DNA of 35,538 nt, taken from positions 1-35,538 of the forward strand of contig NZ_WBKP01000041.1 of the NCBI RefSeq assembly GCF_009602465.1, in the 5' to 3' direction. The notes beneath the pieces were generated by a model. It was given only the letters and a program-made list of their open reading frames with translations. It had not been told where the DNA came from and searched no databases. Positions 3,403 through 33,132 of the stretch are shown here, in pieces. A program made the translations under genes and the position numbers. The stretch is from Cumulibacter manganitolerans (lineage in GTDB: Bacteria > Actinomycetota > Actinomycetes > Mycobacteriales > Antricoccaceae). The number at the start of each line of letters is the position of its first letter. Position 1 is the first letter of the stretch.

Positions 3403-3558
3403 CTACCTGACCGTGACGTCGTTGTACGGCAGGTGCGGCTCGATCCACGGGAAGACGACGAAGAACAGCAGCGCGACGACCGCCAGGACCAGCAGCGCCG
3501 CCTGCGCGACCTTGGCCGCCGTGCCGCCGGGCAGCCGTCGCCAGATCCACGCGTACAT
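3403..3558 (-). CDS. Small single-pass membrane protein next to sortase
   Basis: A 51-aa protein starting MYAWIWRRLPGG, followed by one membrane helix (about residues 18-38: AALLVLAVVALLFFVVFPW) and a short tail EPHLPYNDVTVR. The ATG (3558-3556) overlaps the last base of the sortase TGA stop (TGATG) and an SD (GGAGGG) lies just upstream, so it is translated with the sortase. I recognise this as the small protein commonly found beside class E sortase in the pknB-trpG region of actinobacteria; I know of no established function. The hydrophobic helix and start-stop overlap make it a real gene in spite of its size. Confidence 0.88.
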   Translation of the reverse strand: MYAWIWRRLPGGTAAKVAQAALLVLAVVALLFFVVFPWIEPHLPYNDVTVR

Positions 3559-4346
3559 CAGCCCTCCTTCAGCGCCGGGACGTCGGCGGCCGACGGGTAC
3601 TGGGCCTTGGTCAACGGCTCGCCGTCGAGGTGCGCGTGGATGATCATCCGCTGCGCGGCCGAGAACTTCGGGTGGCAGGTGGTGAGGGTCAGCAGCCGGA
3701 GCACGGGGGCGGCGGCGGAGTCGCCGGGCACCGGCGCGATCGCCTGGTAGTCCGAGGGCGTGGTGACCGTTCGGCCCGTGATCGCCCCGTACGCCGGATC
3801 GCGGAAGTCGCCGCTGGCCTTGTCCCCGATCACCCGGTAGACGTACCAGCTGGTCTGCGTCTCCACCACGATCGCATCGCCGGGGACCAGCTTGTCGACG
3901 TTGAGGAACGGCGAGCCCTTGCCGACCCGGTGCCCGGCCACCGCGAAGTTGCCCACCTCGCCCGGCCCGGCCGTGTCGACGTAGTGGCCCGGTCCCTTCT
4001 CGAGTGCGGAGGCCGTGGTGCCCTGTACCACCACCTGCGCGTAGTCCGGCCCGAACGCCGGGATACGCAGCACGGCGAGCGCGTCACCGATCGGGACGTC
4101 GGAGTAGGTGGTGTCCTGCGTGGGGGTGCCGACGGTGGGGTCCTGCGACGACCACCGGTCGTGCAGCTGCTGGCTGAGCTGGTCCTGCGTGCGGGCGGTG
4201 AAGATGTCGGTGATGAACGCCTGATAGACGATGAACAGCAGCACCACCACGCCGAGGGTGATCAGCGTCTGGCCGATGCCGCGCATCGCCGTGCGGCATG
4301 CCGTGTCGTTCGGGGGCCGCGTCGCGTCGTCGTCGTGCCCGCGCAT
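3558..4346 (-). CDS. Class E sortase
   Basis: A 262-aa membrane-anchored cysteine transpeptidase that joins secreted proteins to the cell wall or acts as a housekeeping sortase; actinobacterial class E enzymes typically use LAxTG-type signals. One N-terminal membrane helix lies at ~25-46 (cytoplasmic N-terminus), then the sortase beta-barrel: catalytic His139 in VAGHRVGKGSPF, Cys224 in LTLTTCHP and Arg233 in AAQRMIIHAHL. The start at 4346 is preceded by GAGGGAG about 11 nt upstream; the frame is open upstream to 4493 but that part is proline/arginine-rich and runs into lanM. A second possible start lies 20 codons downstream. Its own upstream region (4347-4483) holds a hairpin and a 30-bp element resembling one in front of lanA. 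Confidence 0.93.
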   Translation of the reverse strand: MRGHDDDATRPPNDTACRTAMRGIGQTLITLGVVVLLFIVYQAFITDIFTARTQDQLSQQLHDRWSSQDPTVGTPTQDTTYSDVPIGDALAVLRIPAFGPDYAQVVVQGTTASALEKGPGHYVDTAGPGEVGNFAVAGHRVGKGSPFLNVDKLVPGDAIVVETQTSWYVYRVIGDKASGDFRDPAYGAITGRTVTTPSDYQAIAPVPGDSAAAPVLRLLTLTTCHPKFSAAQRMIIHAHLDGEPLTKAQYPSAADVPALKEG

Positions 4347-4385: not shown

Positions 4386-4411
4386 CCCGCCTCGCGCGCC
4401 GGCGCGGCGGG
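4386..4411 (-). terminator. Strong GC hairpin between lanM and sortase
   Basis: Arms CCCGCC (4386-4391) and GGCGGG (4406-4411) enclose GCGC/GCGC (4394-4397 and 4402-4405) with a 2-nt bulge. It lies downstream of the lanM stop and upstream of the sortase start, so it may end lanM transcription or sit in the sortase leader. No T run follows. Confidence 0.45.
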
Positions 4412-4433
4412 ATTGCGCCAGCCAACCACATCC

Positions 4434-4463
4434 GAGGAAAACTCGCTGTGAGCGGCCCGAACG
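4434..4463 (-). repeat. 30-bp element upstream of sortase, similar to 7939-7969
   Basis: On the plus strand, a GAGGAAAA tract leads into GTGAGCGGCCCGAACG. The element at 7939-7969 matches at about 24 of 31 aligned positions (one gap), in the same orientation. The two copies lie ~88 nt (sortase) and ~76 nt (lanA) upstream of a start codon, and on each side of lanA-lanM. It could be a shared promoter or operator, or a duplication made when lanA-lanM was inserted. Confidence 0.4.
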
Positions 4464-4483: not shown

Positions 4484-7400
4484 TCAGCGCCACATCAGCG
4501 CCGATGGAACCACTTCGGGAGCGGCCGTCCGCAGCAGGGCGTAACCGATACCCGAGAGTCCCATGAAGAAGCCCGGCATGTGCACCCGCTGGGGCAGCGA
4601 CGAGTGCAAGGCGAACGAGCCCGTGGCCGACGCCCGCTGGACTACGGCCACGGCGCGGCGCGTCGCCTCATCGACCAGGCTGCGTTCCCCCAGGTACTGC
4701 CCCGCGGTCAGCAACAGCTCGGCTCGCCCGAGATTCCCACAGCACAGGTGGTCGGGTCCGTCGAGGTCGAGCCGCATCGTCGTCCGGACCGCCGCCACGA
4801 GGTCCTCGTTGGAAAGCTCCGCCCCGAGAGCCTTCAGGGTGCCAAGCCGGGCGAGCCCGATGCCCGGGGCACCGTGGCACCAGTTCGCCTTGTAGGACGG
4901 CTGGATGTCCTCGCGAAGATCTCTCCAGTTGGCGGCCTCGAGATCGAAGAGCGTGCTCTCGTAACGGACCGCACCGAGTGCCAAGGAACGGTAGACCGGC
5001 TGCTCGGTAACCTCGAAGAGCCGGGCCAGAGCGTAAGCGATGCCGGCGGCCCCGTGCGAGAAGCCGGTGAGCATCCGGCCACCCAGCGTCGCCCAGGCAA
5101 CACCTTCCGACGGCCCACGGCGGGCGGTCTCGACCAGTCGCCGGCCGCACAGCTCGGCGCGCGAGAGCACGGACGGGTCACCTGTTTCCGCGTACAGGGA
5201 GAGCAGCGCGAGCAGCTCTCCGGCGATACCGGCGAACACGTCGAGCGGGGCGGTCGAGACGCGCTCCGCGTTCAGGAGACCGGCCGCTCGCGTCGCATCC
5301 TCGAGGAGGTCGCGGCAGCCCAGCAGCGTCGCGCTCCTGGTGAATGCGTAGATCACCGAGCCCAGGCCAGTCGCGCCGCCCGTACCCACCGCGTTCGCGA
5401 AGTCAACCGCCGACCGGGCGAGTGCGTCGCGGACAGGTTGCAGCGCAGCCAGCGCCGTGTCCCGGAAGCGGTCATCACCGGTGACCGCGCCGAACGTGGA
5501 AAGGAACAGCGCGGGCCCGCAACCGCCGCTGTGCAGGTCGTAGGCCACGGGCTGCAGCTGGTAGCGCTCCAGTCTCGGCAAGTACTGTGGCGCGATCCAG
5601 GTGGCGGTGGCCGGCACACCCGGACCGCGGACCGCATGCCGGGAGATCTCTTCGGCCACGGCCAACGCCGCGTCGACCAGGGCCTCCGGGGCTGAATCGG
5701 CCTGCTGCGCGAAAGGCGCGGCGGCGACCGCGGACGGTCCGGGCGTCTCGTGCCGCGCCGCATCGGCATGCAGCGACCCGGCGATGAAGGCCAGTTGCCG
5801 GTGAAGGTCGCTCTCGTCGAGTCCCGCCAAGCGGGCGGTCACGAGATCGGCTGACGGTTCCCGAAGGCACCCCTCGACAGTCGTCCCGTCTTCGAGGGTC
5901 AACGTCGTCGCCGCCGCCGACGCGGCGAAGTAGGGGATGTCGAGGTTCTCCATCGCCTCGCGCTCGGCCATCGGTCCCTCGGGCGCGACCAGATCCCCCC
6001 GGTGCTCGAGCAGGAAGCGATAGCAGTGCTCGAACCCTTCGAGAAGGTCGTGGGTGTGGTTCTCGAGCCGCGCTGTCCGCCCGTCGGGCAGCCTTGGCAC
6101 GCTGTTGGGCAGCTGGAGCTGCACCGCCCCTGTCCGGATTGCCATCGCGTCGGTGTTGACGTTCTCCCAGCGGGGGGCGCGCTCGATGAGCTCGTCGGCC
6201 TCCGGCGTGTGGAGCGCGCTGATGTCGCGGGCGAGGTTGGTCTCCGACCCGTCGTCGACCTGCCAGTTGGGCAGGAGACCCGTCCCGAGCACGCCGCTAG
6301 AGAGCGCTTCGAGAGCGATCTCGTGGACGTTCCCGGCGGTCGTCGCCATCTGCACCCGGTGCTGCAGCAGGCACTCGGCGTCCACGAGCACCGGTTGTTC
6401 ACCGCTGGCCACGATGTTCTCGCGGTGGCAGTCCGCCCCGGCGAGTGCATACACCAGGCACGCCAGCATCCCGGCTCGCCTGTAGTAGCGCGAGAGCGCC
6501 GCCGCGTCTGCGCACGGATCGCGCGAGACGTGCTCGACCCAGCCGTACCCATCGCGCACCATGGTCGTCACCGTGCGAAGGTCCGGGCTGAGGCCTCGCT
6601 CGCTCAGCCACCGAATCACAGCGAAGAACGACGCCTCCGTCCCGATGTCCTTCGGCTTGTAGACCACGGCGCGGCCACACTCGAAGTGCAGTACCGACAC
6701 CATCCGGCCGCCGCGATGCGGGTCGGACAATCCGGTCTCCGCATGCGCCACCCGACCGAGAGGTGTGCCGGTCCCGAACACTGCGTGGAGATCCTCGAGA
6801 TCGTTGTGCAGGCGCGTCACCAGCTCCGCGGTCGCGTCCACCCAGAGCTCCACGAGCCTTGCCATCAGCCGGGCGAGAACGGGGTAGTGACCGAGGATTT
6901 GCAGCAGGCCACCGTCGCGGACAGAGGCGACGAAGTCGTCATATATCGCCGTTCCGGGAGCCCGCTCATCGGCGGCGACCAGCCGCTGCCAAGGGCTGGT
7001 GCGGGCCGCGCGGAACCCGCTGAACTCGGAGTAGAAAACTCGCCCTGCGACTCCCGACAGGCGAAGCAGCAGCAGGCGCTCGAGGTCCGCGACGGCCGGG
7101 GGCGCCCACGACACGGAGAGGCGTGCGCCGGTGCGCTCCTCAAGCCTCCGGCGCGCGACGGCGAGAAAAGGCGTGAGGAGCTCTTCGAACGCCGCCGGCG
7201 TCTCACGCTCGCGGCTAACCTCGCCGTCCGGGTAACCCGCGGTGAGCACGGCGCGGAGGGTGTCCGCCCAGGACGGCAGTGGCAGGTCTGCGGGCCGCAA
7301 GACGGTGAGGACGGTGCGAGCGTCGTCCGCGCTCAGGCCGTCCGCCGCCAACCGGCTCTCGAACGCCGCCGTGCTGCCGCGACCGACGGCTGCCTTCCAG

Positions 7401-7594
7401 GCGTCGAGACGCTCGTCCGCCGCTTCGGGTTCGGTGCCGTCGGTCGCGCGAAGCCACGTCGCGCGATCAGACAGCGAGCTGGCCGCCGCGACGAGCGAGG
7501 CAAGCGCTGCCTCGATGACGGAAGCCTTCAGCAGCCGCAGCCGTTCTGGATCGAGCTGAACGTCTGCGACGTCGATGCGCCACAGGTGCAGCAT
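4484..7594 (-). CDS. lanM: Class II lanthipeptide synthetase LanM
   Basis: A 1036-aa bifunctional enzyme that dehydrates Ser/Thr of a precursor peptide and adds Cys thiols to form (methyl)lanthionine rings in the cytoplasm. The N-terminal dehydratase (DUF4135, kinase-like) spans roughly residues 150-650: VVYKPKD (Lys313/315), AGADCHRENIV (Asp388, His390, Asn393) and VLVDAECLL (Asp405, Glu407). The C-terminal LanC-like cyclase (~700-1036) has NWCHGAPGIG (Cys906) and HLCCGNLG (Cys951, Cys952) as zinc ligands; the usual Cys-His pair is Cys-Cys, as in the promiscuous ProcM-type enzymes. The ATG at 7594 lies inside lanA (67-nt overlap); the next in-frame ATG, GTG or TTG is about 80 codons on (a TTG), so this start, or a nearby CTG, must be used. 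No frameshift or missing motif is seen. Confidence 0.95.
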   Translation of the reverse strand: MLHLWRIDVADVQLDPERLRLLKASVIEAALASLVAAASSLSDRATWLRATDGTEPEAADERLDAWKAAVGRGSTAAFESRLAADGLSADDARTVLTVLRPADLPLPSWADTLRAVLTAGYPDGEVSRERETPAAFEELLTPFLAVARRRLEERTGARLSVSWAPPAVADLERLLLLRLSGVAGRVFYSEFSGFRAARTSPWQRLVAADERAPGTAIYDDFVASVRDGGLLQILGHYPVLARLMARLVELWVDATAELVTRLHNDLEDLHAVFGTGTPLGRVAHAETGLSDPHRGGRMVSVLHFECGRAVVYKPKDIGTEASFFAVIRWLSERGLSPDLRTVTTMVRDGYGWVEHVSRDPCADAAALSRYYRRAGMLACLVYALAGADCHRENIVASGEQPVLVDAECLLQHRVQMATTAGNVHEIALEALSSGVLGTGLLPNWQVDDGSETNLARDISALHTPEADELIERAPRWENVNTDAMAIRTGAVQLQLPNSVPRLPDGRTARLENHTHDLLEGFEHCYRFLLEHRGDLVAPEGPMAEREAMENLDIPYFAASAAATTLTLEDGTTVEGCLREPSADLVTARLAGLDESDLHRQLAFIAGSLHADAARHETPGPSAVAAAPFAQQADSAPEALVDAALAVAEEISRHAVRGPGVPATATWIAPQYLPRLERYQLQPVAYDLHSGGCGPALFLSTFGAVTGDDRFRDTALAALQPVRDALARSAVDFANAVGTGGATGLGSVIYAFTRSATLLGCRDLLEDATRAAGLLNAERVSTAPLDVFAGIAGELLALLSLYAETGDPSVLSRAELCGRRLVETARRGPSEGVAWATLGGRMLTGFSHGAAGIAYALARLFEVTEQPVYRSLALGAVRYESTLFDLEAANWRDLREDIQPSYKANWCHGAPGIGLARLGTLKALGAELSNEDLVAAVRTTMRLDLDGPDHLCCGNLGRAELLLTAGQYLGERSLVDEATRRAVAVVQRASATGSFALHSSLPQRVHMPGFFMGLSGIGYALLRTAAPEVVPSALMWR

Positions 7595-7863
7595 CCGGTC
7601 CGGTCCGCACGCATCATCGACGTCACGATGTCATCGAGGACCTCGTCCGGGATGCGGCGAGAGGGAATCCGTCCCGGCACCACGAGGTGGATGACGTCGT
7701 CCGTCTCCTCGTGCACCTCGACGCGAACCCCATCCGGCACGCCGATGCCGTACTCCCGTTTCAGGGTCTCAACCGGGTTCGACAACAGCTCCGCGCGGAA
7801 CCCGTCGTCCCGTAGCACCCGGGAGTTGATCTCCGCCTGGCCGCCGCTTTCCTCGTGCTTCAT
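7528..7863 (-). CDS. lanA: Lanthipeptide precursor with nitrile-hydratase-like leader
   Basis: A 111-aa precursor. Residues ~8-90 form an NHLP leader: FRAELLSNPVETLKREYGI, VPDGVRVEVHEETDDVIHLV, then IPDEVLDDIV, the typical pattern derived from the nitrile hydratase alpha subunit. After MMRADRTG comes a core of 21 residues beginning CCTCGASTSQ and ending IQNGCGC, with 5 Cys and 7 Ser/Thr. No clear double-glycine cleavage site is present. The ATG at 7863 has GGGAGG 4 nt upstream; an alternative in-frame ATG at 7899 would add 12 residues. LanM starts within the last codons, so the two are coupled and LanM is the obvious modifying enzyme. A LAP or thiopeptide fate is unlikely because no YcaO or LanB-like gene is nearby. 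Confidence 0.9.
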   Translation of the reverse strand: MKHEESGGQAEINSRVLRDDGFRAELLSNPVETLKREYGIGVPDGVRVEVHEETDDVIHLVVPGRIPSRRIPDEVLDDIVTSMMRADRTGCCTCGASTSQTFSSIQNGCGC

Positions 7864-7938: not shown

Positions 7939-7969
7939 GAAGAAAAACCGGCCGTGAGCAGCCCTAACG
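7939..7969 (-). promoter_or_regulatory. Element upstream of lanA, similar to the one upstream of sortase
   Basis: A 31-bp stretch with an A5 tract and GTGAGCAGCCCTAACG on the plus strand, ~76 nt upstream of the lanA ATG. See 4434-4463 for the partner copy. The rest of the 183-nt gap (7864-8046) holds only GC-rich sequence with no convincing -35/-10 pair. Confidence 0.4.
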
Positions 7970-8046: not shown

Positions 8047-8886
8047 TCAACCGGTCGCCTTCGCGTGCGACACACCGAGGCCGCCGGTGTACGCCGGGAA
8101 CGTGACGTCCGCCCGCCGCTCGACGTCGTACCCCAGACCGAAGGCCTGCACGGCGTCGAGGAACAGCTGGACGCCGGGCGCCTTCTTCAGCGCCTGCTCG
8201 ATCGCGTCCTGATCACCCAGCCCGACGATCACGAACGGCGGCGAGTAGACGCGGCCGCCGAGCAGCAGCGTGTTGCCGACGCAGCGGACGGCGCTGGTCA
8301 TGATCAGGCGCTTGTCCTGGATCATGACCGCCTCGGCACCGGCCGCCCACATCGCGTTCACGACGCCTTGGACGTCGCTCTGGTGGATGACCACGTCGTC
8401 CGGGCGCGCCCCCGGGGGCAGCTCGCCGTCCGGCCCCAGCGGCGCGTCGGTGAGCGTCACGCGGACGGCGGGACCGTGCACCTCGGTGAGCCCGGCGGCG
8501 GCCTCCGCCTGAGCGGTCTGCGCAGCGAGGGCGTCGGTGCTCGCGTCGTGCTCCGCGAGGTTGTCGCTGAGCGTCTTGACCTGCGCCGCGAGCACACCGC
8601 GCTGCTGCTCGAGCTGCTGGTTCTCGCGAGCCCGGTCGTGGATCACCTGCTTGACCTCGGCGCTCGCGCTGCGCAGGTCGCTACCGTTGGCGGTTCGCGA
8701 GCTGACCGCGAACATCAGTCCCGCCACGAGGGCGATCACCGGGACGGCGACCGTCCACCCCGGCGTCCCGCTGCGACCGAGGAGCCGCCGCGCGCGCCGC
8801 AGCAGGGCCGCCCGCAGCAGGGACACGCGTGACCGGGGCCCGGAGACGCGATCGCGCGTCGCGGACTGGCGGGCTGGTGCGGGCAT
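8047..8886 (-). CDS. DUF881 family membrane-anchored protein
   Basis: A 279-aa protein with a basic cytoplasmic N-terminus, one membrane helix (~44-62, WTVAVPVIALVAGLMFAV), a coiled-coil-like stretch (~75-115, rich in Gln/Glu/Leu) and an extracellular DUF881 domain to the end. DUF881 resembles Bacillus YlxW/YlxX and is found beside crgA and sortase genes in actinobacteria; its molecular role is not established, though the neighbourhood suggests division or cell-wall assembly. The ATG at 8886 was chosen because the open frame upstream runs into the crgA promoter; GGAG is very close to this ATG. It is divergent from crgA with a 65-nt shared control region (8887-8951). Confidence 0.88.
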   Translation of the reverse strand: MPAPARQSATRDRVSGPRSRVSLLRAALLRRARRLLGRSGTPGWTVAVPVIALVAGLMFAVSSRTANGSDLRSASAEVKQVIHDRARENQQLEQQRGVLAAQVKTLSDNLAEHDASTDALAAQTAQAEAAAGLTEVHGPAVRVTLTDAPLGPDGELPPGARPDDVVIHQSDVQGVVNAMWAAGAEAVMIQDKRLIMTSAVRCVGNTLLLGGRVYSPPFVIVGLGDQDAIEQALKKAPGVQLFLDAVQAFGLGYDVERRADVTFPAYTGGLGVSHAKATG

Positions 8887-8951
8887 CGCTCCATTGTGCC
8901 CTGCTGGGACGGGTAGTCTGGGGGTAGCCGTCCCGACGAGGAGAACTTTCC

Positions 8952-9221
8952 GTGCCCAAGTCAAAGGTCCGCAAGAAGTCGGTCTACACGCCGCCCGCGG
9001 ACAGCCCGATCGTGAGCAGCCGCACCGCCGTTCGAGAGCCCAGCCCCGCGTGGTGGGCGCCGGTGATGGTGCTGATGATGCTTGCCGGCCTGATCTACAT
9101 GCTGGTGTTCTACATCCGCGGCGACCGCATCCCGTTCATGGTGACCCTCGGGGCGTGGAACTACGCCGTCGGTTTCGCGGCCATCGTCGTCGGCCTGCTC
9201 ATGGCGATGCGCTGGAACTAG
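8952..9221 (+). CDS. crgA: Cell division protein CrgA
   Basis: An 89-aa two-helix membrane protein. The basic N-terminus (MPKSKVRKKSVYTPP) is followed by helices at ~33-55 (AWWAPVMVLMMLAGLIYML) and ~69-88 (WNYAVGFAAIVVGLLMAMRW), ending at RWN, all hallmarks of CrgA. CrgA binds FtsZ, FtsQ, FtsI and other divisome parts and helps place peptidoglycan synthesis at the septum. It starts at GTG with a clear GAGGAG site 6-8 nt upstream, and a strong hairpin terminator follows directly. Confidence 0.95.
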   Translation: MPKSKVRKKSVYTPPADSPIVSSRTAVREPSPAWWAPVMVLMMLAGLIYMLVFYIRGDRIPFMVTLGAWNYAVGFAAIVVGLLMAMRWN

Positions 9222-15959: not shown

Positions 15960-18032
15960 CTAGTAGGGCGCAGACCCGAAGACGTAGACGACGTCCCCGA
16001 CCTGCAGCTGGTCCCAGTACACCTTCGCGGCCTCCCACGACAGGTGGATGCAGCCGTGCGACGGCGTCGTCAGGCTGCCGACGTGGAAGGCCACGCCGCC
16101 GACGAAGAAGATCGAGTAGGGCATCGGGGCGCCGCCGAACTCGCTGGAGAGGTGGTCGATGTCCTTCCAGTACACCTTGAAGGTGCCGGTCGGCGTCCGG
16201 TAGCCGGCGCGGCCCGCGATCTGCTTGACCGGGCCGTAGTAGATCTGTCCGTTGGACTGCAGCCAGGTGGTGCTGTGCGTCAGGTCGACGCAGGCCTTGG
16301 CGTACGCCGGGCACGGGTTGGGCGGCGCGACCACGTTGACGTTCGTGCACTTGGTCATCTGGGTGGCGCCGAGCCCGACGTTGACGACGTACATGCAGAC
16401 GGTGTGCCAGCCAACGCTGGCCGGCAGACCCACGTTGACGCCGTGGTTGCCGCTGACGCCGAGGTACATGTTGACCCCGGGCTGCGGCTGGTTGGCGTTG
16501 GCGAACCCGACGGCGTTGCCGTCGACGGTCCACATGGTCTGCGTGGCGACGCCCCACTGGTTGGGGTCGTAGGCCCAGCCGCCGACGCCGATCGCGCCCT
16601 GGTTGCCGGTCACGTTGAAGTCGCCGCGCGGGTTGTCGCGGTAGGCGTCGGGGTTGATGGTGACGGTGGTGCACTTCGGCCAGGTGCCCTTCCCCCAACC
16701 GATGTTGTGCACGTACAGGCACACCTGGTGGTTGCCGTACGTCGACGGGCTGAACCGGTAGTCGATGCCGTGCCAGCCGGGGACGCCGTACGCCGAGAGG
16801 TCGGTGCCGGGTGCCTGCGCGTAGAACGCGCCGGCCACCGAGCCGTTGTCGGTGATCCAGACGACGGTCTTGGCGTACGGATCGCTCGGGTCGTAGGCGT
16901 ACCCGCCGACGTAGATGTCGCCGTTGCCCAGCAGCGCGGTGCCGATGTCGCCGGTCGGGTCGGCGTTGGGCACGTTGACGTCGAGGCACTTCACCAGCTG
17001 GCTGGCGCCGGGGCCGATGTTGATGACGAACATGCACACCGAGTGCTGGCCCGGGTTGGGCGCGCGCAACGCCCCGAACACCCCGCGGTTGTAGACGCCG
17101 TACGGGTAGAGGTCCGGGGACGCCAGCGTCGCGGCCTGGTACGCCACCACGCTGCCGTCCATGGTCCACATGGTGATCGGGGCCTGCGACATGTCGCTCG
17201 GGTCGTAGGCCCAGCCGGTGAAGTAGATGAGGCCGTCGCTGTTGACCCACGAGCCGAAGGTGCCGACGGGATTGTCGTTCCAGCCCGCGCTCGTCGTCTT
17301 CGGCTGCGCGTCGAGCGCGGGGGACGGCTCGGTCGTGGCGGACGCCGACGGAGCGGGCTTCGGCGACTCGGGGGTGGGGGTGGCCGTCGCGGTCGGCGAC
17401 TCGGATGGTGCCGCGGAGGACGACGAGGACGACGATCCGGAGGACGCGTCCGACGACGAGGACGACCCGGACGCCGTGTCGGGGGCGGTGGACGTCGCGT
17501 CGACCGGAGCGGGTGCCTCGAGGCAGGCGGTCGCGCTGGCGCCGGTCGCCCCGCCGACGAGCAGCGCCGCGTCGATCCGCAGGCCGCCGCCGGCCGCGCA
17601 GTTCAGCGCCGTCGGCGTGCCCTGGTAGGAGTAGGCCACGGTGACGGTGTACGTGTAGGTCTCGCCGGCCGGGACGGTCGCCTCGTCGACGAGGTACGCC
17701 CCACCGGTGGGGTGTCCCGCCTGCACCGGCTTGTCGGCTCCGCCGACGGTCACGGCGGTGGCCGTGACGCCGGTGACGGCGGCGCCGTCCGGAAGCGCGG
17801 GCGTGACCTGCGTCGACACCGGCTCGGCCACGGCGGTCGGGTTGTGCACCGTGAGCGTGTAGCGGGCCGAGCCCAGCGTGCTCGTCGGCGCGTAGTCGGT
17901 GGCCACCCCGGTGGCGGTCAGCGTCAGGTCGAACCCGGAGGCGCCGGCCGAGCCGGCGTACGCGACGACGAGGAGCGCCGACAGCACGGTGGTGAACAGC
18001 CCGCGAGCCGAGCCGATGAGGGTGCCCTTCAT
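15960..18032 (-). CDS. Secreted L,D-transpeptidase with three Cys-pair repeats
   Basis: A 690-aa exported enzyme predicted to form 3-3 peptidoglycan crosslinks or attach proteins to peptidoglycan. Layout: signal peptide (~1-31, AYAGSAGASG), a beta-rich domain resembling DUF11 (~33-165), a Ser/Thr/Pro linker (~175-245), three ~100-aa repeats (~254-355, 357-459, 466-568), and a YkuD catalytic domain (~571-690). Each repeat has a G(W/Y)AYDP motif and a Cys pair exactly 16 residues apart (333/349, 438/454, 546/562), suggesting a disulfide. The active site is His650 in AFHVGS and SHGC with Cys661. The last ~119 residues nearly copy those of the gene at 18851. The ATG follows AAAGG. Repeats of this type may bind cell wall or sugar, but that is not shown. 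Confidence 0.9.
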   Translation of the reverse strand: MKGTLIGSARGLFTTVLSALLVVAYAGSAGASGFDLTLTATGVATDYAPTSTLGSARYTLTVHNPTAVAEPVSTQVTPALPDGAAVTGVTATAVTVGGADKPVQAGHPTGGAYLVDEATVPAGETYTYTVTVAYSYQGTPTALNCAAGGGLRIDAALLVGGATGASATACLEAPAPVDATSTAPDTASGSSSSSDASSGSSSSSSSAAPSESPTATATPTPESPKPAPSASATTEPSPALDAQPKTTSAGWNDNPVGTFGSWVNSDGLIYFTGWAYDPSDMSQAPITMWTMDGSVVAYQAATLASPDLYPYGVYNRGVFGALRAPNPGQHSVCMFVINIGPGASQLVKCLDVNVPNADPTGDIGTALLGNGDIYVGGYAYDPSDPYAKTVVWITDNGSVAGAFYAQAPGTDLSAYGVPGWHGIDYRFSPSTYGNHQVCLYVHNIGWGKGTWPKCTTVTINPDAYRDNPRGDFNVTGNQGAIGVGGWAYDPNQWGVATQTMWTVDGNAVGFANANQPQPGVNMYLGVSGNHGVNVGLPASVGWHTVCMYVVNVGLGATQMTKCTNVNVVAPPNPCPAYAKACVDLTHSTTWLQSNGQIYYGPVKQIAGRAGYRTPTGTFKVYWKDIDHLSSEFGGAPMPYSIFFVGGVAFHVGSLTTPSHGCIHLSWEAAKVYWDQLQVGDVVYVFGSAPY

Positions 18033-18236
18033 GGGACGCCGACCTTTCCCGAAAGTCCGATCTCGCCGTTGCCGTCGGACGTCCTGGGCGGGCGGTGCTT
18101 CCCGTTACGTGAGGCGCGAAATCCAACGCCGATTGTATCCACGTGATTCGGTCGCGATAGTGGCGTTGCGCTGGGGACATGCCCGAACCGTGACCTGGTT
18201 GAGGCGGTTGTGCCTGGTGGGCCGTCGCCGGACCGG
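18033..18236. promoter_or_regulatory. Region upstream of first L,D-transpeptidase
   Basis: A 204-bp gap without a gene. An inverted repeat CAACGCC/GGCGTTG (18124-18130 and 18162-18168) brackets an A/T-richer stretch with TACAAT on the minus strand (18132-18137), a possible -10 box about 100 nt from the start codon. No matching -35 is clear. Confidence 0.3.
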
Positions 18237-18842
18237 TCAGAGCCCCTCGAGCACCGCCTTGGCGATCTCGACCGCCTCCAGAGAGCTCGCCTGGTTGAGG
18301 GTCACGACCACCAGCGCGGTACCGGCCCACGCGGCGAGGTCGGTCCGGGACTGGGCGCTGTCGACCCGCACCGATCCGCCCTCGCCGGCGTTCGCCGGGT
18401 TGCCGCCCGGCACCTCGGCGAGCGCTGCCGCGAGCCCCGCACCGGGCGCCACTGCCCGGGTGCGCACCGACACCGCGACGTCGCCGTCCGCGCGCACGAA
18501 CTCGCACTGCGGCCGCGGGCCGGACGGTGGCTCGGTGGTCGTGACGACCACGGACGCGATGCGCTGGCCCACCGTGGCTTCGACGAAGTCCTCTCCGAGA
18601 TACGGGCACGAACCGTCGCTGACGCTCACCCGGGTCGCGCTGGGCGCCGCCGATGCGCCCGGCGGCCCGGGGGCGGCCGACGGCTGCGACGATCCCGCAG
18701 GCTGGCCGCCGGCGGACCCGGTTGCGCTGCCGCCTCCGGGGCCGGCCGACGTCCCGGGGACGCGGTTTCCCTCACCGGTGCTCGAGCATCCCGCGACGCA
18801 GGCGACGACCGCACCGAGGACCGCGAGCGCCCGGGCCGGCAC
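18237..18842 (-). CDS. DUF2020-like lipoprotein
   Basis: A 201-aa lipoprotein. The GTG start at 18842 gives a short signal peptide ending VAGC (Cys19), followed by a Gly/Ser/Ala/Pro-rich tether (~20-65) and one globular domain beginning CPYLGEDFVEATVGQRIASV with a later QCEFVRADGDVAVSVRT. This pattern resembles DUF2020 proteins of actinobacteria, whose function is unknown. It starts 8 nt after the stop of the upstream L,D-transpeptidase, so the two likely share a transcript. The frame is open upstream inside the transpeptidase gene but that part is a shadow; the lipobox fixes the start. Confidence 0.78.
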   Translation of the reverse strand: MPARALAVLGAVVACVAGCSSTGEGNRVPGTSAGPGGGSATGSAGGQPAGSSQPSAAPGPPGASAAPSATRVSVSDGSCPYLGEDFVEATVGQRIASVVVTTTEPPSGPRPQCEFVRADGDVAVSVRTRAVAPGAGLAAALAEVPGGNPANAGEGGSVRVDSAQSRTDLAAWAGTALVVVTLNQASSLEAVEIAKAVLEGL

Positions 18843-18850
18843 GATGCGCG

Positions 18851-19816
18851 CTAGTACTGCGGCGAGCCGTAGATGTACACGACGTCCCCGGGCTGCAGCG
18901 CGTCCCAGTAGGTCTTCGCGGCCGACTCGGACAGGTGCACGCAGCCGTGCGACGGGGTGCTCAGCGAGCCGACGTGGAAGGCCATGCCCTCGCCGTTGAA
19001 GAAGATCGAGTACGGCATCGGCGCGTTGTCGAACTCCTTCGACAGGTGATCGATGTCCTTCCACTGCACGGTGTAGGTGCCCGGCGGCGTGCGGTGCCCG
19101 TTGCGCCCGGCGATCTGCTTGAACGGCCCGGCGGTCACCACGCCGTCCTTCTGCAGCCACGTCGTGTTGCTGGTCAGGTCGACGCACGCCTCGGCCGTGG
19201 CCGGGCAGGGGTTGGCGGCCGCGGCGGCCGCCTGCTCTTCCTTCTGCTTCTTGGCGGCGGCGATCTCGGCGGCGCTCAGCACGTGCAGCGACTTCGCCTT
19301 GCTCTGGTTGGCGAGGAAGCTCGGGTTGCCGGCGAACTTCGCGTAGTAGCTGTGGTCGCCGTCGGCGAGGCCCTTGACGGTGAATGCCATGTTGCCGGCG
19401 GTGTTCAGCGTGGCGGTGGCATAGCCGGCGCCGTCCACGACGAGGGTGACGTCGCCGAACGGCACGCCGGGGTTCGGCGTCTGGACGGTGATCGATACCT
19501 TGACGCTCTCACCGGTGCCGATCGAGGCCGCTGCCTTGGTGAAGATGGTGGTGGGCTGGTTGGTCGGCGGCGCTTCCGAGGTGGGCGCGGCGGACGTGGG
19601 GGCGGCCGAGGTGGTGGTCGTCTCCGAGGTCGGGGCCGCACTCGAGGTGCTGGCCGGCGAGTCCGACGGCGTCGCGGAGACGGTTTCGCCCGACGTGGGC
19701 CCGGCGGCGGACTTCGGCGCCCCGGTGGCGCATCCGCTCAGCAGGAGCCCAACGGCCGCGCTCGCAGCGATCAGCAACAGGCCGCGCTGCGACCGACGAC
19801 GTGAGCTCGTGCCCAT
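18851..19816 (-). CDS. Lipoprotein L,D-transpeptidase with Ig-like domain
   Basis: A 321-aa membrane-anchored L,D-transpeptidase. The lipobox LLLSGC sets the lipidated Cys29; a Ser/Thr-rich linker (~35-90) is followed by an Ig-like beta domain (~92-180, DVTLVVDGAGYATATLNTAG), a Lys/Glu/Ala helix (~182-201) and the YkuD domain (~203-321) with His281 (AFHVGS) and Cys292 (SHGC). Its last 119 residues align without gaps to the enzyme at 15960 apart from one or two positions (shared KDIDHLS, APMPYSIFF, TPSHGC, GDVVY), so the pair arose by duplication with different front domains. The ATG is preceded by GGAG. The 222-bp region in front (19817-20038) holds no gene. Confidence 0.92.
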   Translation of the reverse strand: MGTSSRRRSQRGLLLIAASAAVGLLLSGCATGAPKSAAGPTSGETVSATPSDSPASTSSAAPTSETTTTSAAPTSAAPTSEAPPTNQPTTIFTKAAASIGTGESVKVSITVQTPNPGVPFGDVTLVVDGAGYATATLNTAGNMAFTVKGLADGDHSYYAKFAGNPSFLANQSKAKSLHVLSAAEIAAAKKQKEEQAAAAAANPCPATAEACVDLTSNTTWLQKDGVVTAGPFKQIAGRNGHRTPPGTYTVQWKDIDHLSKEFDNAPMPYSIFFNGEGMAFHVGSLSTPSHGCVHLSESAAKTYWDALQPGDVVYIYGSPQY

Positions 19817-29294: not shown

Positions 29295-30374
29295 CTACCG
29301 AGTCGGTAGATCAAGCAGCAGGTCAACGATCGACGTGAGTCCTGAGACAGGATTGACTACGCCCCTGAACGGGTACGGCAGAGCGATTCTGAACTCGACC
29401 GAGTCCACATCGATGTGTGAGAATCCCGCGACGTCTGAGCGCTTGAGTATGCGGAGGTTGTCGTCCGCGAGGTCGTAGAGCCGCTCGAACGTCCGCGAGA
29501 ACCGCTTCTGGAACCGTGACTTGTTCTTGTCACGGGCATGCTTGTATCCGAGACTCGCATCGCCTCCGTACTGCTGTACCCGATCAAGAAAGTCAGCCTG
29601 GGCGGAGGTAGACGTGATCCTCTGGAGGATCCGCTCCACGATCGACGGGACTGTCTCGCCGGCCCGCTGGCCCTTGGGCACAGCGAGCACTCCCAGACTC
29701 AACAGATGCAGGGACGTCTCGGCAACGTCGGTGACCGGATGCCCGACCTCGACCTGTTGGAAGCCTTGGATGTGATGTGTAGATGTCGATCCCGACGTCG
29801 TCTTGACCTCCACACCAATCGCGCCGAGTTGGAAGTCGCGCGACGACGGCCGCCAGCCGAACCAGGACTGGACGAGATCATCGACAACTGCGGGCTGGAC
29901 ACTGACGGTGAGCTCATCTAGGAGTACTAACTCGCCATAGAGGCCCACGAGCACTTGGTCACCGACCTGATCGGCCCCGTAGATGAACTTAGCGATCAGC
30001 GGCTCGACCTGTGCAAAAGCGCCAGTCGGATCGTCGTTGTAGCCAGCCTCGATGAGCTCGACGCATATGAGCGCGGCGGCGCTGTCGAAGTGGGCGTCTC
30101 CCGGGAGAACGATCTGGTTCGCGCAGATCGCGCCCTCGTTCGACGACTGCCAGTCATCGCGGTAGTCCATCGCGCGGTCGACCACGGCCTGGGAGGCCGC
30201 AAGCCGCTCACCCACGAGGAACACCTCGACTCGCCCGCCCTCGTCGCGCGACAGCGCGATCGAGTGGCCTTCGTCGGCAAATCCGATATAGCGCTCAATC
30301 GACGACGGGGCGGGATCCAGGCTCCCGACGTAAGACTTGAGTTGCTCGTACGTCGTCTGGTCTGTCTCAGTCAC
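29295..30374 (-). CDS. PD-(D/E)XK nuclease-like protein (DUF4420 type)
   Basis: A 359-aa predicted restriction-type DNase. The motif cluster of the PD-(D/E)XK fold is visible: GLYGELVLLDEL (Glu148), SSRDFQLGAIGVEVKTTSG with Asp180, Glu189 and Lys191, and Gln207 in QGFQQVEV. The layout resembles the DUF4420 nucleases that accompany Z1-type ATPases. It starts at GTG, overlapping the Z1 stop by 8 nt, so it is the last gene of a coupled three-gene unit. The family link is by motif and context, not by a database match. Codon use is more A/T-tolerant than in the chromosome part. Confidence 0.82.
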   Translation of the reverse strand: MTETDQTTYEQLKSYVGSLDPAPSSIERYIGFADEGHSIALSRDEGGRVEVFLVGERLAASQAVVDRAMDYRDDWQSSNEGAICANQIVLPGDAHFDSAAALICVELIEAGYNDDPTGAFAQVEPLIAKFIYGADQVGDQVLVGLYGELVLLDELTVSVQPAVVDDLVQSWFGWRPSSRDFQLGAIGVEVKTTSGSTSTHHIQGFQQVEVGHPVTDVAETSLHLLSLGVLAVPKGQRAGETVPSIVERILQRITSTSAQADFLDRVQQYGGDASLGYKHARDKNKSRFQKRFSRTFERLYDLADDNLRILKRSDVAGFSHIDVDSVEFRIALPYPFRGVVNPVSGLTSIVDLLLDLPTR

Positions 30375-33132
30375 TTGAGCTCCCCGTCATCGCGTGGATC
30401 TGATCGGGGCCGCCCAGCGGGATGCTCAGCCCGATGGCCGTGGTGACTGAACCGGCAATGCGCTCGATCGGGTGAAACAGGATCAAGCCGTCCTCTCCTG
30501 CCTTCCGGTCGCCGGCCCGCGTGAGGTTCGCTTTCTGGTGACGCGCGCTGTAGTCGAACTGGTCATCGCCGCGGATCTCGCCATCGACGCCGCGGCCTCG
30601 GGAGCCCCACGTCGCTCGCAGTTCGTTGCCAGCAACCTGGCGCTTCATGGCGCGCACGGGGCCGGCAAGGGCCGCGAGGGGACCGTTCGTCACGACGCTC
30701 CCATCGCCGAAACGAAGGCCTACCCAGAACCTAGGCTGCTTGGCCCACTTCGTTCCCAGATCCACAAGGTCCCAACGCGTCGGCGGTTCGTCAGTCGTCA
30801 CGACAGAGGGCACGCGCCGGATCAAGCACGCGTGCCAGAACCGGAGGTAGGCGGCAACCCAGTACGGGGACTTTTCTCCAAGGTCGCGACCACCCGGTAC
30901 GCAGGGAGCCCGGAAGAAGGGCACGACCGGATCGGCTCCGAGTTGGGCGTGGTTCTCGACCGAACGCCATCGTTCACCCTCGGGCCCATCGCGGCCAGGC
31001 CCGTGATCGGAATAACGCAATTGGTCGAGCAGGTCTGCGGCCTCGAGCAACGACATCGGCTCGCTGCGCAAGAGCCCGCGCGGCCGCGCTCCGCTTCCCA
31101 CGTTAATCGGATCGTCCGCGAACAACTCTGCGACATGACGCAGGTTCGCGTCGTCGTCGCCAGGTGCATTCATGTGAGTGATGAACGGCTTCGGGCCAGG
31201 GAAGAGCGGCTTACTCCGGAGATTCGCGATCTTCCCCGTGGCGAGGTAGGTCCGCCCCTGAAGGACACTAATGTCTGGGAGGGCGTCACTTGACTTCATC
31301 CGAGCTAGGACATCGAGTCGGAGCGCCTCATCGTCCTCGTGATAAGTGACGAAGTTGGCGAGCAGGTCCTGCGGCATGAACACGCGGCAGAGGTCGATGT
31401 ACCTGCCGCGGTACCCGAACCACCGCTGCATCTGCATCTGCGTGTCCGCGAACGGGATGCCGGCTCGACGGGTGAACAACGTGGTGGTCAGGCCCTCGAG
31501 CGTGAGGCCGCGCGACATTACGTTGCCCGAGACGAAGATGGTCGAGAGGTTCTGCGGTGCACGCCAAGTCTCGTCCGCCAGGCGCGTCGGCGAGTACTGG
31601 GGGCGGTCGTCTGCGTCTTCGTGGCTGTTGATCACACGCACCGATGTGGCTGGCACGATCTGGCTGAGGATCGCGTTCTGAACAGAGGGCCACTCGTCGA
31701 GTTTAGGAACGGGACGATTGCCCGCCCCCGGCATGGAGACAACGGCTGCAGCGGCCTTCGTGTAATCCTCGAGCCAGCGTAGCCACCGTTCGGGCCGTGC
31801 AGTCATGTCCTGCTCGATGCCGGCAGAGCCGAGTTGCCTGTCGATCCGAGTGTCGACATCGTCGCCATCCACATCCTCGACCAAGCCCGCGGACCAACGG
31901 AGCAGTTCCTGGGCGACCCGGAAATGGTCGTCCATGCCGGACGACGGGTGGATCAGCATCGATGCCACCAGGGGCGACTGCTGTGTGGCCTGGTGTAAGG
32001 AGTCGAAAACCGCTTCTCTGGCGTCGTGGGGCCCGAGTCGGTTGGGAGTCCGTATCAGACGGACGGCAGAGGCGACGAGAAATGCTCGAACTGCCTCGGG
32101 GACCTGTTCATCAGGAGCGATCTGGTTGGTCGGGATGCACAACGGCACAGAGCTCAAGGTCTTGTAGTAGAGGTCTCCGCCGGTGTACCAGTCATTGATC
32201 CCCTCCGGCACCCGATACGTCGGCGTGCGGACCTCTAGGATGCCTTCTGCGCCAGCAGTCCTGAGGCTCGCCACGAAGTCTCGTGGGGCGAGGGGATTCT
32301 GGTCGTCCTGAAGGAAATTTGCCTCAGGAGTCGCGGTGTACCCGAGGTACGTGGCGAAGACCTTGCCGTTCACCGTCACGCCTGGACGCGCTCGGTCCTC
32401 CCAGATGTCGACGATCCTCCTCGGTACCTGCTTTGGCTCGGCCGTCGGCGACGCAGCCTCAGCGCTGACGTCCGCGACTGACGAATCGTCGGCCTCGTCA
32501 TCGATGACTAGCACGTGGAACGGCTTGTCGCGCGCAGCGGCACCCCCGTAGGCGTCTCGCATGACCTTGGCGAGCCGCTGCAGGTGCGCCCAGTTCTTCA
32601 TGACAATGGCGAGGATCGGTTTGTTCTGCTGCAAAGCAAGGTTCAGCGCCGCTGGCGCGCCGATCTGGTACAGCAGGTCGATATTGACGTCGGAGGGGTC
32701 GGTCGGGATGGTTCGTGGCACGAGAAGCCGGCGCTTGTGGGCGTTCGTCGCGAACGCCAGTTGCTCGGTTGCCCGCTCGTAAGTCTGTTTCCACAAGGCG
32801 GTTCGGGTTCCGGCGAGGATGATCACTGCATCGACGCCACGATCCAGTGCTTTGGCTGCAACGGCCATCATCGAAGCGGTCTTACCCGATTGCACAGCCC
32901 CCATCACGAGACCGCTGCGCTCACGGGAGGAGGGCCACCGGCCTTCGGCCGGATCACCGACCCCGAAGACACCCCGATCGACGATGAACTCGGCGTCGGC
33001 TTCAATGACTGCGCGGCTGGTTGCGTTGATTCCACTCAGATGAGCCGCATAGGTCTCCCACCAGGAGGGCTCCGAGACCGCACCTGTTGGACGGTAGATC
33101 CGCACCATTCCATGCGGCGCGCCGTTGCTCAT
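30367..33132 (-). CDS. Z1-domain superfamily II ATPase
   Basis: A 921-aa helicase-like ATPase with an associated Z1 domain. Walker A is GAVQSGKTA (Lys84); Walker B is LVIDDEAD (208-215); motif III is LGYTATPEAN (263-272); the C-terminal half has FVSGNVMSRGLTLEGLTT (Z1 signature) and TQMQMQRWFGYRGRY (arginine-finger helicase motif). Z1 ATPases occur in multi-gene anti-phage or restriction-like systems together with a PD-(D/E)XK nuclease and often MutL-like (GHKL) or AIPR proteins (Mza-type systems). Here the partners visible are a DUF262 protein upstream (ATGA overlap) and the nuclease downstream (8-nt overlap). Length and motifs are complete. Confidence 0.92.
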   Translation of the reverse strand: MSNGAPHGMVRIYRPTGAVSEPSWWETYAAHLSGINATSRAVIEADAEFIVDRGVFGVGDPAEGRWPSSRERSGLVMGAVQSGKTASMMAVAAKALDRGVDAVIILAGTRTALWKQTYERATEQLAFATNAHKRRLLVPRTIPTDPSDVNIDLLYQIGAPAALNLALQQNKPILAIVMKNWAHLQRLAKVMRDAYGGAAARDKPFHVLVIDDEADDSSVADVSAEAASPTAEPKQVPRRIVDIWEDRARPGVTVNGKVFATYLGYTATPEANFLQDDQNPLAPRDFVASLRTAGAEGILEVRTPTYRVPEGINDWYTGGDLYYKTLSSVPLCIPTNQIAPDEQVPEAVRAFLVASAVRLIRTPNRLGPHDAREAVFDSLHQATQQSPLVASMLIHPSSGMDDHFRVAQELLRWSAGLVEDVDGDDVDTRIDRQLGSAGIEQDMTARPERWLRWLEDYTKAAAAVVSMPGAGNRPVPKLDEWPSVQNAILSQIVPATSVRVINSHEDADDRPQYSPTRLADETWRAPQNLSTIFVSGNVMSRGLTLEGLTTTLFTRRAGIPFADTQMQMQRWFGYRGRYIDLCRVFMPQDLLANFVTYHEDDEALRLDVLARMKSSDALPDISVLQGRTYLATGKIANLRSKPLFPGPKPFITHMNAPGDDDANLRHVAELFADDPINVGSGARPRGLLRSEPMSLLEAADLLDQLRYSDHGPGRDGPEGERWRSVENHAQLGADPVVPFFRAPCVPGGRDLGEKSPYWVAAYLRFWHACLIRRVPSVVTTDEPPTRWDLVDLGTKWAKQPRFWVGLRFGDGSVVTNGPLAALAGPVRAMKRQVAGNELRATWGSRGRGVDGEIRGDDQFDYSARHQKANLTRAGDRKAGEDGLILFHPIERIAGSVTTAIGLSIPLGGPDQIHAMTGSSSD

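What the first reader, a model, noticed from the sequence alone, without database searches (positions are those of the whole stretch)
4484..7863. Uncharacterised class II lanthipeptide pair (lanA-lanM) inserted in a conserved cell-division block
A complete LanM and an NHLP-leader precursor sit between a DUF881 gene and class E sortase, genes that are normally neighbours in actinobacteria. The predicted core has 5 Cys and 7 Ser/Thr and matches no lantibiotic I know. It is a minimal cluster: no LanT, C39 peptidase, LanP or immunity gene is in the window.
Basis: partly seen in the sequence, partly recalled or inferred. Interest (0 to 1): 0.85.

Follow-up and report, generated by a model that had tools for sequence, protein, structure and literature searches.

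The report
Lanthipeptide gene pair with unusual synthetase
An actinobacterium carries, spliced between two housekeeping genes, a two-gene kit that very probably makes a new ring-shaped peptide (a lanthipeptide), using an enzyme type best known from cyanobacteria; it is a new member of a known kind.

Summary
On the minus strand lanA (7528-7863, 111 aa, NHLP leader model, E 1.4e-14) overlaps lanM (4484-7594, 1036 aa, LanM model, 739 bits) by 67 bases. The pair lies between DUF881 and class E sortase genes. Congener G002 and family member G003 have these neighbours with no room for lan genes; the other congener has mgtE there. It is an insertion.

Its closest relative found is a Nostoc plasmid enzyme (39% identity). 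Of 32 actinobacterial LanM ORFs read, four, this one included, are CCG. The leader lacks the usual GG cleavage site, and no C39 peptidase was found in the genome.

Most likely mechanism: leader-guided dehydration and cyclisation of a 29-aa core (5 Cys, 8 Ser/Thr). Leader removal, export and function are unknown.

The parts
7528..7863 (-). lanA, precursor peptide of 111 aa with its stop
   Evidence: TIGR03793 NHLP E 1.4e-14, 53.7 bits over cut-off 50.9; GGGAGG four bases before the ATG
7618..7863 (-). NHLP leader, residues 1-82; the usual GG is replaced by Thr81-Ser82
   Evidence: HMM match of residues 10-79 to profile 7-74 of 77, extended by inference to the profile end; MAFFT places the GG columns a few residues later but also finds no GG
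7531..7617 (-). predicted core, residues 83-111: 29 aa, 5 Cys (91, 92, 94, 109, 111), 8 Ser/Thr
   Evidence: the cleavage point is inferred
4484..7594 (-). lanM, class II lanthipeptide synthetase of 1036 aa with its stop
   Evidence: TIGR03897 739.3 bits; DUF4135 and LANC_like
7528..7594 (-). 67-base overlap of lanA and lanM in different frames; 7594 is the only in-frame ATG/GTG/TTG before codon 82. A CTG at 7531, overlapping the lanA stop as CTGA, is a possible non-standard start
6380..6658 (-). dehydratase catalytic codons Lys313, Asp388, His390, Asn393, Asp405 (all in this stretch)
   Evidence: conserved in 33-35 of 35 aligned LanMs; correspond to CylM Lys274, Asp347, His349, Asn352, Asp364 by alignment and paper passages
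4739..4879 (-). cyclase zinc ligands Cys906, Cys951 and Cys952 (CCG type)
   Evidence: CylM uses Cys875, Cys911, His912
4386..4457 (-). native sortase-upstream stretch, now between lanM and sortase
   Evidence: aligns with the DUF881-sortase interval of congener G002; 1 of 300 shuffles scores as high
7941..7969 (-). 29-base imperfect copy of 4435-4463 upstream of lanA; possible insertion footprint
   Evidence: weak: 14 of 300 shuffles score as high
8047..8964 (-). DUF881 gene, upstream neighbour
   Evidence: PF05949 E 7e-41
3558..4346 (-). class E sortase gene, downstream neighbour (ORF can open at 4493; start at 4346 inferred)
   Evidence: NF033747 248 bits

Best explanation
It is an acquired minimal class II lanthipeptide locus. 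LanA is made; its NHLP leader holds the peptide on LanM (inferred). The N-terminal lipid-kinase-like domain phosphorylates core Ser/Thr and eliminates phosphate to give Dha/Dhb. The C-terminal domain, with a zinc held by three cysteines, adds core Cys to them, giving up to five thioether rings and leaving at least three Ser/Thr unused or dehydrated (inferred). The overlapping genes are probably translated together (inferred). Since there is no GG site and no C39 peptidase was found, a protease outside the locus must release the core, and an unlinked transporter, if any, must export it (inferred). Shown by sequence: gene identity, catalytic residues, clade, insertion. Not shown: expression, ring formation, product function.
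For: Model matches for both genes. Catalytic residues of dehydratase and cyclase retained. Open frame over all 1036 codons without stops. CCG clade support 100/99 in 32 rows and 100/100 in 21 rows. Insertion seen against G002 and G003. No C39 peptidase in the assembly, matching the missing GG. The only other NHLP-model matches in the genome lie in one frame at C61, the nitrile hydratase alpha subunit.
Against: No expression, dehydration or product data. Without GG, protease or transporter the pathway may be incomplete. The lanM start is not settled. No close relative of the pair was found, so conservation of the pairing cannot be used as evidence. The NHLP model also scores nitrile hydratase alpha over its cut-off (66.1 bits), so the model alone does not prove a precursor; the 111-aa length, the Cys-rich tail and the lanM neighbour do the rest.
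Confidence: 0.77

Rival explanations
1. The locus is a decaying remnant: transporter, protease and GG site were lost after transfer, and the pair no longer yields a mature peptide.
For: No C39 found, no GG, no promoter-like site in the sigma-70 scan (poorly suited to this genome), odd lanM start.
Against: Both frames are intact; the catalytic residues inspected are kept; a good ribosome site precedes lanA. A Streptomyces plasmid CCG LanM also sits just after a GG-less precursor with no peptidase transporter annotated within about 6 kb (that gene table is incomplete and an ABC ATP-binding gene lies at the edge), so the arrangement may recur.
Confidence: 0.14
2. LanM is a ProcM-like promiscuous enzyme whose main substrates lie elsewhere in the genome, lanA being one of many.
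For: CCG enzymes such as ProcM (29 substrates) and SyncM (79) act on dispersed precursors (PMC10027976 passages).
Against: Besides lanA, the NHLP model matched the own genome only in nitrile hydratase alpha; no Nif11 leader at E<=10; LanA as a query matched nothing else in the own genome but that same gene (E 0.03). Precursors with other leaders were not tested.
Confidence: 0.06
3. Native ancient locus of this lineage, lost from the relatives, rather than an insertion.
For: lanM G+C is the same as the window (0.700 against 0.698), lanM GC3 is only moderately low (0.848), and two unrelated window genes are as low (0.850, 0.823).
Against: No LanM match in G001-G004; nearest relative found is cyanobacterial at 39%; lanM GC3 0.848 against 0.895-0.965 for the five nearest genes trpG, sortase, DUF881, crgA, enoyl-CoA hydratase.
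Confidence: 0.1

Closest known systems
ProcM/SyncM-type (CCG) class II lanthipeptide synthetases and prochlorosins
   Same: Two-domain LanM, three-cysteine zinc site, supported CCG clade
   Different: Actinobacterial host, one adjacent precursor with NHLP rather than Nif11 leader, no GG. ProcM itself was not in my trees.
Nostoc sp. ATCC 53789 plasmid LanM locus (NZ_CP046705, L097)
   Same: Closest LanM found: 39% identity over 988 columns, CCG motif, precursor just upstream
   Different: Nif11 precursor with GG; peptidase-domain ABC transporter and HlyD genes follow
Roseocin family (actinobacterial two-peptide lantibiotics)
   Same: Actinobacterial class II, leaders described by the authors as NHLP
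   Different: RosM is CHG type with two precursors; here CCG and one precursor. Cores were not compared.
NHLP precursors next to LanM (Haft 2010; Walker 2020 families II 2, 13, 17, 25, 29)
   Same: NHLP leader beside a LanM
   Different: Those in Haft 2010 end in Gly-Gly with cores of average length 26; here GG is lost
Streptomyces sp. NBC_00829 plasmid pair (NZ_CP108868, L129)
   Same: CCG LanM, precursor immediately upstream, no GG, Cys-Cys in the core, no peptidase transporter annotated within about 6 kb
   Different: Leader resembles Nif11 (E 1.7e-5, under cut-off), shorter core; the two LanMs are distant

Membership tests
Class II lanthipeptide synthetase (LanM) | DUF4135 dehydratase plus LanC-like cyclase in one protein | tested here: met
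   PF13575 E 6e-95, PF05147 E 8e-55, TIGR03897 739 bits
Class II lanthipeptide synthetase (LanM) | Catalytic kinase residues and zinc ligands | tested here: met
   Lys313, Asp388, His390, Asn393, Asp405; Cys906, Cys951, Cys952
Class II lanthipeptide synthetase (LanM) | Dehydration and cyclisation of LanA | not testable with these tools
   needs co-expression and mass spectrometry
ProcM-like (CCG) LanM | CCG in place of CHG | tested here: met
ProcM-like (CCG) LanM | Groups with CCG enzymes | tested here: met
   100/99 in 32 rows; 100/100 in 21 rows; two clade members have lost zinc ligands; ProcM itself not included
ProcM-like (CCG) LanM | Many dispersed substrates (seen in ProcM and SyncM; not required of the clade) | tested here: inconclusive
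   no further NHLP precursor or Nif11 leader found; other leader types untested
Prochlorosins | Nif11 leader ending in GG | tested here: not met
   LanA matches NHLP, Nif11 model not listed at E<=0.01; no GG
NHLP leader family (TIGR03793) | Score over curated cut-off | tested here: met
   53.7 against 50.9 bits; nitrile hydratase alpha also passes this cut-off
NHLP leader family (TIGR03793) | GG cleavage site at leader end (typical) | tested here: not met
   so it is filed as an NHLP-type leader that lacks the typical end
Roseocin family | CHG LanM | tested here: not met
   CCG
Roseocin family | Core homologous to Ros alpha or beta | not tested

The most novel reading that the evidence does not exclude
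The pair represents an actinobacterial branch of CCG lanthipeptide systems that has dropped the GG/C39 export route: GG-less leaders (NHLP here, Nif11-like in Streptomyces NBC_00829) are fused to cores with vicinal Cys beside a CCG LanM, and maturation depends on host proteases, perhaps giving a peptide that acts inside or at the surface of the producer.
Probability: 0.2. Interest if true: 0.55.

Novelty: new member of a known kind. Interest (0 to 1): 0.36.

Why it matters
CCG LanMs are valued as substrate-tolerant tools, and the characterised ones (ProcM, SyncM) are cyanobacterial. An intact actinobacterial one with a single neighbouring NHLP precursor and no GG site gives a compact test of whether leader family, zinc motif and promiscuity must go together. 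The product, if made, would be an uncharacterised peptide with up to five rings.

Tried and rejected
GC3: my first value for lanM (0.733) came from a stretch read out of frame and is wrong; the in-frame value is 0.848. So composition gives only moderate support for recent transfer.

Chance core look-alikes: two weak matches that include the core (G002, E 0.06, 43-codon frame; G001, E 1.7, 106-codon frame) were read and not followed further. In one search the minus-strand loci (L151, L153, L154, L156) were translated on the wrong strand; nothing in this report rests on those lines. The Acidobacteriota locus L003 shares only NHLP leader motifs and lies beside a nitroreductase-family gene; I saw no LanM in its ORF list.

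G472 (CCG LanM): a 42-aa peptide on the opposite strand near its lanM was considered as precursor; it matched no NCBIfam model. With a small local model built from four peptides, no NHLP precursor was found near the LanMs of G472 or G991.

Viral contigs held no relative of LanM or LanA. DNA-level search of plasmids gave only matches of about 110-130 bases inside streptomycete lanM genes. Repeats gave no clear mobile-element ends. No tRNA in the window.

The rule 'NHLP with CHG, Nif11 with CCG' (PMC10027976, legend of its Fig. 2) was considered as proof that this pairing is new, and rejected: the same paper says that clusters mined with ProcM (Zhang et al. 2014) had highly varying leader families, and that study was not read. 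In my data the four CHG-linked precursors tested matched the mersacidin/lichenicidin model best and did not reach the NHLP cut-off, so the published label NHLP may be broader than TIGR03793.

No structure prediction was run.
Full report
What is there. On the minus strand, lanA runs from ATG 7863 to a stop at 7528 (111 aa) and lanM from ATG 7594 to a stop at 4484 (1036 aa). LanA reaches the curated NHLP leader model TIGR03793 (53.7 bits, cut-off 50.9, E 1.4e-14); LanM reaches the LanM model TIGR03897 (739.3 bits, cut-off 304) and holds DUF4135 and LANC_like domains. These are not chance frames. GGGAGG stands four bases before the lanA ATG. A caution: the same genome's nitrile hydratase alpha also passes the NHLP cut-off (66.1 bits); LanA differs by its length, Cys-rich tail and lanM neighbour.

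Gene overlap. In the lanM frame the only ATG/GTG/TTG before codon 82 is 7594, and a tryptophan found in 32 of 35 LanMs lies at residue 66, so a start at codon 82 would cut a conserved part. With ATG 7594 the gene overlaps the lanA core by 67 bases in another frame. A CTG at 7531 forms CTGA with the lanA stop and would give an N-terminus closer in length to the Nostoc enzyme (inference from the two translations). Which is used is open.

Catalytic anatomy. In an alignment of 35 LanMs, Lys313 (34 of 35), Asp388 (35), His390 (33), Asn393 (35) and Asp405 (35) are conserved. By alignment with CylM they correspond to Lys274, Asp347, His349, Asn352 and Asp364, described as active-site residues in passages of PMC4550811. 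The cyclase has Trp905-Cys906-His-Gly and Cys951-Cys952-Gly; CylM uses Cys875, Cys911 and His912. So the third zinc ligand is Cys, the CCG or 'CCC' type (passages of PMC11251773; PMC10027976).

Relatives. The tool's tallies include the own genome; without it: at E<=1e-20, 21 of 149 relatives have a LanM match, none of them the two congeners or two family members, with matched pieces at most 41% identical; at E<=1e-40 in the class 13 of 393; at E<=1e-50 in the phylum 0 of 395; at E<=1e-48 in the order 9 of 396. These samples overlap. I read the cyclase motif of 32 actinobacterial LanM ORFs (24 rows, the window's included, and 8): 4 are CCG (window, G472, G991, Streptomyces NBC_00829), 26 CHG, one lacks the motif (L105), and one (L115) is cut short, its continuation in another frame being CHG. 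A motif scan of the short loci gave 39 further lines outside the own genome, several loci per LanM and partly the same LanMs: 37 CHG and 2 CCG, both G472. The ORFs were chosen by likeness to this LanM, which if anything favours CCG. Among plasmids, 25 records matched at E<=1e-30; best was Nostoc sp. ATCC 53789 (38.7% over 95%).

Tree. With 32 rows (three of 35 dropped: L115 truncated, L105 and L119 without the zinc motif), the window LanM is in a nine-row set supported 100/99 that holds all seven CCG rows and two cyanobacterial rows that have lost zinc ligands. With 21 selected rows, including G991, the ten-row set (eight CCG and the same two) has 100/100 and needs one change of label. The exact sister is unsettled (83/40). 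ProcM itself was not available to include.

Leader and precursor. The HMM match ends at profile position 74 of 77, so the GG columns fall, by extension, on Thr81-Ser82; MAFFT shifts this by a few residues but shows no GG either. The three Tistrella, two Nostoc UHCC 0926 and one Azospirillum NHLP peptides aligned there end in AGG; the Acidobacteriota peptide does not. No C39 peptidase domain was found in the 3.9 Mb assembly (136 contigs, 100% complete by the tool's figure) at E<=1. The predicted core MMRADRTGCCTCGASTSQTFSSIQNGCGC has 5 Cys and 8 Ser/Thr.

Partner leaders. The Nostoc CCG LanM follows a Nif11 precursor over cut-off and precedes a peptidase-domain transporter and HlyD. The Streptomyces NBC_00829 CCG LanM follows a precursor resembling Nif11 (E 1.7e-5, under cut-off), also without GG; no peptidase transporter is annotated within about 6 kb, though an ABC ATP-binding gene lies at the edge and that gene table is incomplete. 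No precursor was recognised for G472, G991 or the haloarchaeal CCG LanMs. The four precursors tested beside CHG LanMs match the mersacidin/lichenicidin model best. PMC10027976 reports NHLP leaders with CHG LanMs and, in one cyanobacterial subclade, both leader types with both motifs (passages), but also cites varied leaders for ProcM-mined clusters (section 18). Hence NHLP with CCG is a less usual pairing, not demonstrably new. Searches for print precedent; the two further papers I asked for by DOI (recalled as Zhang 2012 on LanM evolution and a 2015 actinobacterial survey) were not held.

Insertion. In G002 and G003 DUF881 is followed closely by sortase, leaving no room for lan genes; in G001 an mgtE gene (PF01769 E 1.6e-33) occupies the same interval on the other strand; G004 gave no DUF881 match but has crgA and sortase. 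Of 29 relatives' loci, 20 show sortase after DUF881 within the 1.5 kb read; in nine none was seen there. In the six genomes with both hits listed (G007, G009, G011, G022, G034, G040), LanM and DUF881 are on different contigs. The stretch between lanM and sortase aligns with the interval of G002 (1 of 300 shuffles as high), placing the insert just upstream of it; it did not align significantly with G003 or G001 (63 and 43 of 300), and an imperfect 29-base copy upstream of lanA is weak (14 of 300). GC3 of lanM is 0.848 and of lanA 0.866, against 0.895-0.965 for the five nearest genes (trpG, sortase, DUF881, crgA, enoyl-CoA hydratase); but two other window genes outside the defence-like island are as low (0.850, 0.823). 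Acquisition is well supported by synteny, only moderately by composition; the source is not known.

Other substrates. The NHLP model matched the own genome only here and in one gene at C61, nitrile hydratase alpha (TIGR01323 311.6 bits over cut-off), with similar matches in G001-G004. No Nif11 leader at E<=10. Thus I found no sign of a ProcM-like set of dispersed substrates, with leaders of other kinds untested.

Verdict. A sound class II lanthipeptide pair, inserted, with a rarer synthetase type and an unusual lack of a GG/C39 route. Known kind, new member; interest moderate. The next step is co-expression and mass spectrometry.

Noticed in passing
29295-35366: Three adjacent genes at the contig end (DUF4420 PD-(D/E)XK, Z1 domain, GmrSD_N/DUF262) with low GC3 (0.765-0.791) look like a phage-defence-like island; PADLOC gives partial matches (MzaC, NsnA and others) but no clear whole system. 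The contig ends soon after.
   Followed up: partly
L059:4884-6383: In congener G001 an mgtE gene sits in the same DUF881-sortase interval, so this interval seems to accept insertions.
   Followed up: partly
L098:7872-11132 and L131:5872-9087: Cyanobacterial LanMs in the CCG clade that have lost zinc ligands (WANG...CWG or MWG); they may dehydrate without cyclising. Near the Nostoc UHCC 0926 one lie NHLP and Nif11 precursors without core Cys.
   Followed up: no
15960-19816: Two L,D-transpeptidase (YkuD) genes close together, of 690 and 321 aa.
   Followed up: no
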